A stretch of DNA of 64,000 bases, taken from positions 310,001 to 374,000 of the forward strand of contig NC_014150.1 of NCBI RefSeq assembly GCF_000092845.1, written 5' to 3'. Within the stretch, counting starts at the first letter, position 1, and the number at the start of each line of letters is the position of its first letter. This DNA comes from Brachyspira murdochii DSM 12563 (GTDB taxonomy: Bacteria; Spirochaetota; Brachyspiria; Brachyspirales; Brachyspiraceae). Below, piece by piece: positions 2,572 to 58,218 of this stretch. Below the pieces are notes generated by a model. It was not told the origin of the DNA, did not search any database, and saw nothing but the letters and a program-made list of their open reading frames with translations. The position numbers were made by a program, and so were the translations under genes.

Positions 2572-3330
2572 ATGAACAAAATAGAAAACTATTTTTTACA
2601 GCATAATAAAATAAAATTCTCAAATGTTGTATTCAGCCAGCATAATAAAAAAATAATATTAAGAAATCCAAAAAAAGCACAGCAAGCAGTAAAAAAAGAA
2701 GAAAAAAATATTACAAATAAAGGTATAGAATTGATGAAAGAAATAAAAAATGAAGATTTAAAAAAGATATACAACGAAGTAGAGAAATGTATGAAATGTG
2801 AGGCATTATGTAATAGCAGATTAAATGTAGTATTCGGACGCGGTGATGAGGAGCCTGATATAGTATTTGTGGGAGAGGCACCGGGAGCAGACGAGGATAA
2901 ACAAGGACTTCCATTTGTAGGAAGAGGAGGAAAACTTCTTGACAAATGGATTGAAAAAATGAATATCAATAAAGAAAAATACTATATAATGAACGCTCTA
3001 AAATGCCGTCCGCCTGAAAACCGAGATCCTTTGCCTGAAGAAAAAGCTAATTGCAGAGACTTCTTTGTTCGTCAATTACAGATACTTAATCCTAAAATAA
3101 TATGTGCATTAGGACGTCATGGATTTGGTAATTTAATAGATTTTGACTTAAAAACACCATTTGGAAAAGCTAGAAATAAAGTACATTACTACAGTAATAA
3201 TGGAAAAGACGTACCTGTAATAGCAACTTATCACCCTGCTTATATATTAAGAAATCAAAAAGAAGAGGATAAAGTAATATCTGATTTAGAGTTTATGTTA
3301 AGCGAACTTGAAAAAATTAGAAATAAATAA
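2572..3330 (+). CDS. Type 4 (family 4) uracil-DNA glycosylase
   Basis: The protein removes uracil from DNA at the start of base excision repair. Motif 1 is GEAPGADEDKQGLPFVGRGG, and the late motif is HPAYILRN. Four cysteines that fit the 4Fe-4S cluster of this family are C73 and C76 (CMKC), the one in LKCRPPENRD and the one in NCRDFF. The first 70 or so residues are a lysine-rich extension without family counterpart; the core would start near MKEIKNEDLKK, so the extension may be a real N-terminal arm or the start may be further in. An AGGA-like site lies ten bases before the chosen ATG. It stands alone between an AT-rich spacer and an ankyrin gene. Confidence 0.9.
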   Translation: MNKIENYFLQHNKIKFSNVVFSQHNKKIILRNPKKAQQAVKKEEKNITNKGIELMKEIKNEDLKKIYNEVEKCMKCEALCNSRLNVVFGRGDEEPDIVFVGEAPGADEDKQGLPFVGRGGKLLDKWIEKMNINKEKYYIMNALKCRPPENRDPLPEEKANCRDFFVRQLQILNPKIICALGRHGFGNLIDFDLKTPFGKARNKVHYYSNNGKDVPVIATYHPAYILRNQKEEDKVISDLEFMLSELEKIRNK

Positions 3331-13263: not shown

Positions 13264-13608
13264 TACTAATATTATCGGAACAAATATCATTAAAATAATT
13301 TAGTTTTATAAAATATAAAAACAAACTAATTTTATATAAATAATCATAATTTACAATATTAAACTCACTTCAAAATTAAATCCATTAATATTTATAGTAT
13401 TTTTTACTGTAGTATTATAACTTATTTAATACCGCATTAAATTACAAAAGCTTACTATTTATTTTATGAAAAAAAAACTATGCTTTTATAATATAATATA
13501 AAGAAGTTTTAGATACAATATTTTCATCTACTTTTAAAACAAATCTATTGACTTTTTTATATATTAAATTATCATTTAAGTAAAATATTTAATAAAAGGA
13601 TTTATATT
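13264..13608. other. AT-rich divergent spacer between rsmH and the HdeD-like gene
   Basis: No gene is visible. A possible promoter for the HdeD-like gene is TTGACT at 13548-13553 with TATCAT at 13570-13575 (16 bases apart). On the other strand a weak TTGTAA/TAAAAT pair could serve rsmH. No strong hairpin was found. Confidence 0.4.
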
Positions 13609-19804: not shown

Positions 19805-19853
19805 TTTATTTTTACTCCTAATTAATACAGAATAATAAAAATAGAAATATATT

Positions 19854-20076
19854 AGGCTTGTTTCAAAACTAAATTTATTTATGATTGTGGGGACTAGCCC
19901 CCACACCCCCACTTCTTTTGGACGCTGTCCGCCCGTGGCGTGACACAAAGAAGCAAAAAGACTGCATATTTACATATTAAAATGATAAAATATACAACAT
20001 GTAAAACATTATGTTTATAATTTTAAAATTAAATAATTTTATACTTAATCTTGTAAAGTAGTTTTGAAATAAGTCT
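19854..20076. repeat. MITE-like repeat A with G+C-rich core
   Basis: The ends are imperfect inverted repeats: AGGCTTGTTTCAAAAC (19854-19869) and GTTTTGAAATAAGTCT (20061-20076), 14 of 16 pairs. The left half is strikingly G+C-rich and contains the hairpin GTGGGG-ACTAG-CCCCAC and a C-rich run, and the right half is AT-rich. Similar ends occur at 39774-39952, 44598 and 58004-58018. It separates kdsA from the cytidylyltransferase gene. Confidence 0.65.
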
Positions 20077-20077
20077 A

Positions 20078-20893
20078 TTATATATTTTTAACTAAAGCAT
20101 TAATTTTTATTACGCTAGCCCATAACTCTTCAACTTTACTCAAATCAAATATAGTTCCAGAATCAGAAGGGCTTTTATCAGGATTAGGATGCACTTCCAT
20201 AAACACAGCATCCACTCCTAAAGCAGCAGCAGCTTTTAAAAGTGCAGGTATAAACTCTCTAGCCCCTCCAGACTGTCCGTTATTGGCAGAAGGCATTTGC
20301 AAAGAATGTGTGGCATCATACATAACAGGTGCATAATTTTTCATTATCTCTAAGTTTTTCATATCTACTATAAGGTTACCATATCCGAACATAGTACCTC
20401 TTTCACATAAAAAAAACCTTTTTTCATCAATGGCATCAGAGCATTTATCCGCTATATATTTGCAGTCATAACCGCTTATAAACTGTCCTTTTTTTACATT
20501 AACCGCCTTTTTAGTTTCGCATGCCGCTCTAAGCATATCTGTTTGTCGGCACAAAAACGCTGGAATCTGCAGAAAATCTACATACTTAGCAGCTTCTTCA
20601 GCATCAGTAGGTACATGTATATCTGTTATAGTTGGAAGGTTAAATTCCTTTCCGGCATCTTGAAGTATTTGAAGCCCTTCTTTCATTCCAAGTCCTCTGA
20701 AAGATGATAAAGAAGTTCTATTTGCCTTATCAAAACTCCCCTTTAATACTAATTGTATATTTAATTTATCTTTTATCTCTTTTAACTTTTTTGCTATAGT
20801 CATAGTCATCTCTTCGCTTTCTATAACGCATGGACCTGCTACAAATATTAAATCTTTATTTTTATTGGTTATACCTTTATAGTCGAAAATCAT
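20078..20893 (-). CDS. kdsA: 3-deoxy-8-phosphooctulonate (KDO-8-P) synthase
   Basis: Condenses arabinose 5-phosphate with phosphoenolpyruvate to KDO 8-phosphate, the first committed step of KDO synthesis for lipopolysaccharide or lipooligosaccharide cores. The sequence shows FVAGPCVIESEEMT, KGSFDKANRTSLSSFRG, TDIHVPTDAEEAA, IPAFLCRQTDML and MEVHPNPDKSPSDSGT, all family motifs. The length of 271 residues is usual. An AAGGA site precedes the ATG. It ends one base after repeat element A. The presence of KdsA argues for an envelope with a KDO-containing glycolipid. Confidence 0.95.
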   Translation of the reverse strand: MIFDYKGITNKNKDLIFVAGPCVIESEEMTMTIAKKLKEIKDKLNIQLVLKGSFDKANRTSLSSFRGLGMKEGLQILQDAGKEFNLPTITDIHVPTDAEEAAKYVDFLQIPAFLCRQTDMLRAACETKKAVNVKKGQFISGYDCKYIADKCSDAIDEKRFFLCERGTMFGYGNLIVDMKNLEIMKNYAPVMYDATHSLQMPSANNGQSGGAREFIPALLKAAAALGVDAVFMEVHPNPDKSPSDSGTIFDLSKVEELWASVIKINALVKNI

Positions 20894-44470: not shown

Positions 44471-44597
44471 ATAATGACTCCATAGTTTTTAATAATTATA
44501 ATTTAGTTTATTATAACATAATGTATATATTTATCAATGAATTTTTATTTTATTGTAATGATTAAATATTAATATTATAAAAAATGATTTAAAAATA

Positions 44598-44736
44598 TAC
44601 CTGTTTAAAACTTATTAGTACTTATAAATTTTTAATTTGGTATTTTGTGATTATAATTTAGAGTTTTGATAAAAGACATCATAAGAGTATAAAACCTAAA
44701 AATAAATTTAAAAAATTATAAATATTTATATATATT
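44598..44736. repeat. MITE-like repeat D, degraded
   Basis: TACCTGTTTAAAAC at 44598-44611 resembles the left end of element B, followed by the same TTATT start and by AATTTAAAAAATTA near 44715 in common with B. The right terminal repeat is missing. The remainder of the 371-base spacer around it is AT-rich without gene. Confidence 0.4.
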
Positions 44737-57509: not shown

Positions 57510-57720
57510 TACAATAAAAATACTATAATAAATTAGTGAAATTTATAGAGAATAATTTACACAATTTTTTTAATATTTTCAATAAAAATTCTTGATTTTT
57601 CCAAAATATTTTCATTAATATCGTTAAAAATATAAATAGATATAACATTTTTTACGTCTTTTTAAAAATTTAATAGTATTTTAGTATATGTTGTATAATA
57701 AAACTATTTTAATAATTATT
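57510..57720. other. AT-rich spacer upstream of the structured island
   Basis: No gene is visible. TATAAT at 57694-57699 could be the -10 box of a promoter for the island that begins at 57721, but no matching -35 sequence is seen. Confidence 0.3.
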
Positions 57721-57890
57721 TACAGTGATCTAAAACATAGCCAGCATGGCTTTACTCCTAAGCAGACAGTCAATGCTTCGACACACGCAGTTCTTTTGCG
57801 TGACCTTACTAGGCAGACAGAAGGAAATACCGTTAAATATAGCATACTAACTTAAGAGATAACCATATACAATAAAGAACGGGATTTTTT
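57721..57890. ncRNA. Structured G+C-richer island, candidate non-coding RNA or repeat core
   Basis: About 110 bases at 57735-57850 are much richer in G+C than the surroundings. Hairpins: AGCCA-GCA-TGGCT (57739-57751), AAGCA with TGCTT (57760-57764 and 57774-57778), and CACGCA with TGCGTG (57784-57789 and 57797-57802). The sequence CTAAGCAGACAG (57758-57769) recurs as CTAGGCAGACAG (57809-57820). It has no real open frame. It does not look like tmRNA, RNase P RNA or SRP RNA. The strand is unknown. Repeat element C borders it on the right. Confidence 0.4.
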
Positions 57891-58018
57891 AAGCTTAAAT
57901 ATGTAATTTATATAACACATATAAAACACTTGCTTAGCAATAATAAATATTATGCATTTTAATAATAAAATTATGAACTTACAAAAAAATATTACTTTAA
58001 TATGTTTTGAAACAAGTA
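57890..58018. repeat. MITE-like repeat C, right half
   Basis: AATATGTTTTGAAACAAGTAT ends at 58018, matching the right end of element B except one base, and the upstream AAGCTTAAATATGTAATTTA resembles the corresponding part of B. No left terminal repeat is found before 57890; the structured island may be the interior of this element. From 58019 to 58218 the sequence is AT-rich without gene. Confidence 0.45.
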
Positions 58019-58218
58019 TAATTTTTTTACTAGTAGTTTAGAATACTCTATATTAGTATCTAAATTTTACCGCTTTTATACAAAATAAAATCAGCATATA
58101 ATAATAAAATAATATAATTAAAAAATCGTAATTTATATTTTTTATAAACAAAAAACTATTTGCAAATATAATAAAAAATATATATATTAATAGATAGTAA
58201 AAATATATTGGAGAACAT

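What the first reader, a model, noticed from the sequence alone, without database searches (positions are those of the whole stretch)
57721..57890. Structured, G+C-richer island that could be an undescribed non-coding RNA
Seen in sequence: three short hairpins, a direct repeat (CTAAGCAGACAG / CTAGGCAGACAG) and base composition unlike the surrounding AT-rich spacer, with no credible open frame, in a 769-base gap between pheS and tsaD. It matches no RNA class that I can recognise. Inference: either an independent small RNA or the core of a dispersed repeat, since repeat C adjoins it.
Basis: partly seen in the sequence, partly recalled or inferred. Interest (0 to 1): 0.6.

Follow-up and report, generated by a model that had tools for sequence, protein, structure and literature searches.

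The report
Decayed copy of a mobile repeat
The G+C-richer island between pheS and tsaD is not a new RNA gene but the worn-out middle of one copy of a short mobile DNA repeat that is scattered in dozens of copies through Brachyspira genomes and that no paper I could search describes.

Summary
The island is real: 38% G+C against 13-15% in the rest of the gap. Its RNA folds no better than shuffled sequence, and the near-repeat is close to chance (9 of 150 random sequences do as well). The island is the centre of a degraded, roughly 336-bp MITE-like element at about 57684-58019. Relatives are 210-457 bp long, with inverted ends AGACTTGTTTCAAAACTA...TAGTTTTGAAACAAGTCT, A+T-rich arms, a variable G+C-rich core, and usually a 3-bp target duplication (AAT or ATT). 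A profile built without the window finds this copy at E=8e-19, and a better copy in the same window at 19852-20078. This genome has at least 38 matches; 23 of 26 Brachyspira genomes have some. Two other copies in this genome have empty sites in sister species. At the finding's locus the right end is intact and the left end unrecognisable. The pheS-tsaD arrangement is not conserved, Rfam has no match, and the family shows no covariation support. No autonomous partner was found; only one transposase family was searched. Verdict: a new family of a known kind (MITE), and this copy an ordinary fossil.

The parts
57684..58019 (+). Decayed MITE-like element, approximate extent (orientation as in the family profile); the left boundary is uncertain within about 57683-57705
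   Evidence: Profile built from 35 other copies matches 57748-58021 at E=8.1e-19; the left arm aligns with L010; orthology to sister species on the pheS side ends at 57682-57683 in seven species and at 57700-57701 in five more
57684..57705 (+). Where the left inverted end should be: not recognisable (degraded or deleted)
   Evidence: No left end within 3 mismatches of ACTTGTTTCAAAA; alignment
57706..57738 (+). Left A+T-rich arm
   Evidence: Alignment with L010
57739..57869 (+). G+C-richer core of the element (the reported island)
   Evidence: Aligned with cores of other copies: GGCTTT..CC, AAGCA.ACA, TGCTT, CAGTTCTTTT, AACCATA
57758..57769 (+). First copy of the reported direct repeat; aligns to the family's CGAAGYACACAG segment
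57809..57820 (+). Second copy of the reported direct repeat; aligns to a different segment of the element (near CCGCCTGCGACC)
57870..58004 (+). Right A+T-rich arm
   Evidence: Profile alignment; alignment
58005..58017 (+). Right inverted end TTTTGAAACAAGT, perfect
57560..57682 (-). Neighbour, not part of the element: degraded C-terminal fragment of a DUF4037/nucleotidyltransferase-type gene that is intact beside pheS in another species
   Evidence: tblastn E=8e-11 with the gene from L086, matched segment read off the alignment; Pfam DUF4037 E=8e-7 for the intact gene
19852..20078 (+). Second, well-preserved copy of the same element family in the window, flanked by ATT on both sides
   Evidence: Profile E=5.4e-35; sequence; fold z -5.86

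Best explanation
[quoted passage not shown] Better-preserved members are 210-457 bp and begin and end with AGACTTGTTTCAAAACTA...TAGTTTTGAAACAAGTCT. They carry A+T-rich arms around a variable G+C-rich core, and most sit between 3-bp direct repeats (AAT or ATT). They moved as DNA: a transposase acting in trans on the ends would insert them and duplicate 3 bp of target. Shown: dispersal, ends, target duplications, empty sites. Inferred: the transposase and its family, since no autonomous partner was found. The copy at the finding has lost its left end and its foldback structure, so it is most likely immobile and without function. Its base composition stands out because the element's core is richer in G+C than the A+T-rich spacer around it.
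For: A profile from 35 elements without the window matches 57748-58021 at E=8.1e-19 (5e-19 without L010 and L171); the reversed window gives nothing better than E=3.1. The perfect right end is at 58005-58017. Paired inverted ends were found in 40 of 42 fetched loci outside this copy. The 16-base end occurs 53, 210 and 97 times in three genomes, with 0 for the reversed control pattern. 3-bp target duplications in 28 of 40 copies; permuted flanks give a mean of 15.2 and a maximum of 25 in 10000 trials. At least 38 matches in this genome and matches in 23 of 26 genomes. Empty sites for the L205 and L204 copies in sister species, with the target present once. Better-preserved copies fold back strongly (z -7.4, -5.9), this one does not (z -0.88).
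Against: The left end of this copy is not recognisable and no target duplication can be read at this locus, so insertion here is inferred from similarity. There is no clean empty site for this copy, because pheS and tsaD are not adjacent in the sister species. No autonomous element with these ends was found. The 40 copies were chosen by similarity to one element and include at least one orthologous pair (L203 and L216).
Confidence: 0.93

Rival explanations
1. An independent small RNA gene, or a cis-regulatory leader of pheS or tsaD, of an undescribed class.
For: Higher G+C than the flanks; one terminator-like stem on the minus strand at 57751-57739, against a mean of 0.0 in shuffles.
Against: No Rfam match; fold no better than shuffles; no full-length relative in the genus by BLAST, and the regions upstream of pheS and tsaD that I read in sister species lack it; homology instead to a dispersed repeat.
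Confidence: 0.03
2. The element was once mobile, but this copy has been taken over as a regulatory or RNA part between the divergent genes pheS and tsaD.
For: It lies between two divergent essential-type genes; better-preserved copies have strong foldback potential.
Against: The foldback is lost in this copy; both ends are well away from the start codons; the sister species manage without it; no sign of constraint could be measured because the locus has no orthologue.
Confidence: 0.03
3. A remnant of a protein-coding gene.
For: A 55-aa frame spans most of the island (57688-57855), and the neighbouring stretch 57560-57682 is a real gene remnant.
Against: The peptide has no relative in 25 other Brachyspira genomes; the similarity to other copies is at DNA level and broken by many insertions and deletions.
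Confidence: 0.01

Closest known systems
[quoted passage not shown] reviewed in PMC10969869)
   Same: Short, multi-copy, inverted ends, target-site duplications, no transposase gene in the copies read, strong foldback in better-preserved copies.
   Different: The parental transposon is not identified. The family's ends and the variable G+C-rich core, which also occurs in repeats with other ends, are not described in the Brachyspira papers I could search.
IS5-family insertion sequences, ISL2 group (from memory only)
   Same: 3-bp target duplication of the form ANT, as recalled; AAT and ATT fit it.
   Different: No DDE_Tnp_1 (PF01609) match in this genome, and none of the fetched loci with such a gene is bounded by these ends; the end sequence was not compared with an IS library.
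REP/BIME palindromic repeats
   Same: Dispersed intergenic repeats with hairpin potential.
   Different: These elements are longer, with defined inverted ends and target duplications, and are not short alternating palindromes (REP/BIME features as described in the abstract of PMC2817692).

Membership tests
MITE | Short element bounded by terminal inverted repeats | tested here: met
   For the family: 40 of 42 loci, 210-457 bp. For the finding's copy: right end perfect, left end not recognisable.
MITE | Target-site duplication | tested here: met
   For the family: 28 of 40 against at most 25 of 40 in 10000 permutations. Not readable at the finding's copy.
MITE | Multiple dispersed copies | tested here: met
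MITE | Insertion shown by empty sites | tested here: met
   Two other copies of this genome. Not possible at the finding's locus.
MITE | No transposase of its own | tested here: met
   Copies are 210-457 bp, too short for a transposase gene
MITE | Related autonomous element with the same ends | tested here: inconclusive
   None among fetched loci or PF01609 loci; other transposase families were not searched
Known structured RNA (Rfam) | Score above a family's curated cut-off | tested here: not met
   other copies of the element also none
Small RNA gene of a new class | Structure above chance or covariation | tested here: not met
Small RNA gene of a new class | Discrete transcript in small-RNA reads | not testable with these tools
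   No expression data are available here

The most novel reading that the evidence does not exclude
The G+C-rich cores are exchangeable modules shared by several MITE-like families with different ends in Brachyspira, so these genomes host a modular repeat system, apparently without a resident partner, in which cores are shuffled between carriers and may be kept for an RNA or DNA-structure role.
Probability: 0.12. Interest if true: 0.45.

Novelty: new member of a known kind. Interest (0 to 1): 0.25.

Why it matters
It removes a candidate RNA gene and replaces it with a concrete, searchable repeat family that is abundant in Brachyspira (about 200 end sequences in the B. hampsonii genome) and is not mentioned in the Brachyspira genome papers I could read. 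Such repeats can seed rearrangements, confuse assembly and small-RNA calls, and serve as markers. The presence/absence differences shown between close species suggest use in typing.

Tried and rejected
Small RNA: Rfam gathering and permissive searches, tRNA/tmRNA scan, folding of both strands, promoter/terminator scan gave nothing beyond one short terminator-like stem. Locus conservation: the regions upstream of pheS and tsaD that I read in sister species show no island. Coding remnant: peptide search negative. The first BLAST searches with the island gave only short matches; several, such as the 21-mers, lie in apparent coding sequence, and I discarded them. A first profile seeded through a shared 16-mer was partly circular, so I rebuilt it from copies found with another species' element and without the window. 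Parental transposon: PF01609 in 26 genomes and long end-bounded elements in fetched loci, none found. No similar plasmid record and no exact match of the end in viral contigs. Literature: nothing found on this repeat in PMC2897892, PMC3163572 or PMC3532143, searched by keyword, nor in the library searches.

Full report
WHAT IS THERE. The gap between pheS and tsaD is 769 bp. The reported island, 57721-57890, is 38% G+C in surroundings of 13-15%, and the two near-identical 12-mers are at 57758 and 57809. The hairpins are not more than chance: the fold is no better than dinucleotide shuffles on either strand. The 11-of-12 direct repeat is matched by 9 of 150 first-order random sequences. Rfam 15 has nothing.

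FINDING THE FAMILY. BLAST of the island against Brachyspira genomes gives no full-length relative. The short motif GAARGAARTACCRTTA, however, recurs in apparently intergenic DNA of this genome and of B. innocens, B. hampsonii and Brachyspira sp. G79 (names by matching contigs and lengths), often preceded by CAGTTCTTTTATGACGTCTGTCCGCCTGCGACC or similar. Two of those copies, L010 and L171, proved to be complete elements whose A+T-rich flanks also match the window's flanks. L171 used as a query gave 38 matches at E<=1e-5 in this genome, from a search that scored only part of its candidates, and matches in 23 of 26 genomes.

ANATOMY OF THE FAMILY. Of 42 fetched loci other than the finding's, 40 have a pair of inverted ends, AGACTTGTTTCAAAACTA and TAGTTTTGAAACAAGTCT or close to it, 210-457 bp apart. 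A 16-base piece of the end occurs 53, 210 and 97 times in three genomes, against none for the reversed control pattern. Just outside the ends, 28 of 40 copies have the same three bases on both sides, mostly AAT or ATT; permuted flanks give 15.2 on average and never more than 25 in 10000 trials. These loci were chosen by similarity and include at least one orthologous pair (L203 and L216), so the 40 are not fully independent.

MOBILITY. Two copies of this genome were tested for empty sites. The L205 copy is absent from the orthologous site in the 17 other species examined, and the L204 copy from B. innocens and Brachyspira sp. G79; in the two closest species the flanks meet with the 3-bp target present once for the L205 copy. 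Better-preserved copies fold into long foldback structures (z -7.4 and -5.9). Across copies the pairing of the ends is almost invariant and the covariation term is unfavourable, which fits ends kept for DNA transposition better than a selected RNA.

THE COPY AT THE FINDING. A profile made from 35 elements without the window matches 57748-58021 at E=8.1e-19. Leaving out L010 and L171 as well gives 5e-19, and the reversed window gives nothing better than E=3.1. The right end TTTTGAAACAAGT is perfect at 58005-58017, while the left end is not recognisable, although the left arm still aligns with L010. This copy has lost its foldback (z -0.88). The same profile finds a second, well-preserved copy in the window at 19852-20078 (E=5e-35), with ATT on both sides. 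In the alignments the reported direct repeat joins two different parts of the element.

NEIGHBOURHOOD. The pheS-tsaD arrangement is not seen in the sister species. On the pheS side, similarity stops at 57682-57683 in seven sister species and at 57700-57701 in five more. That is at, or just past, the end of a degraded C-terminal fragment (about 57560-57682, minus strand) of a DUF4037/nucleotidyltransferase-type gene that is intact beside pheS in the species of L086. On the tsaD side, similarity to the two closest species begins at 58101. The element therefore lies at a junction not seen in the other genomes. Whether it caused the rearrangement is not shown.

INTERPRETATION. By its size, ends, target duplications, empty sites and lack of room for a gene, the family behaves as a MITE. 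The mobilising transposase is inferred. No DDE_Tnp_1 match exists in this genome, and none of the fetched transposase loci is bounded by these ends, but other transposase families were not searched. The 3-bp target of the form ANT recalls the ISL2 group of IS5 elements, from memory only. No description of this repeat was found in three Brachyspira genome papers or in keyword searches, which cover open-access papers only. The finding is an old copy and ordinary in itself; the family is a new member of a known kind.

Noticed in passing
19852-20078: A well-preserved copy of the same element family, with both inverted ends and ATT on both sides.
   Followed up: partly
44595-44658 and 13360-13414: Weak profile matches to the left arm only (E=6e-4 and 0.03); possibly fragments, possibly chance in A+T-rich DNA.
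   Followed up: no
57560-57682: Degraded C-terminal fragment of a DUF4037/nucleotidyltransferase-type gene on the minus strand; the gene is intact beside pheS in the species of L086.
   Followed up: partly
L133, L147, L148, L154-L158, L160, L161, L163-L165, L168: The same G+C-rich core occurs in repeats that lack a pair of these inverted ends; several instead carry AACTATAATTTGTCAA or TTGACAAACTTAAAAATTTT nearby. This suggests cores shared between several repeat families.
   Followed up: partly
L244:2835-3321 (B. hampsonii): Two copies of the element lie almost end to end (2835-3073 and 3094-3321), which may reflect insertion beside an existing copy.
   Followed up: no
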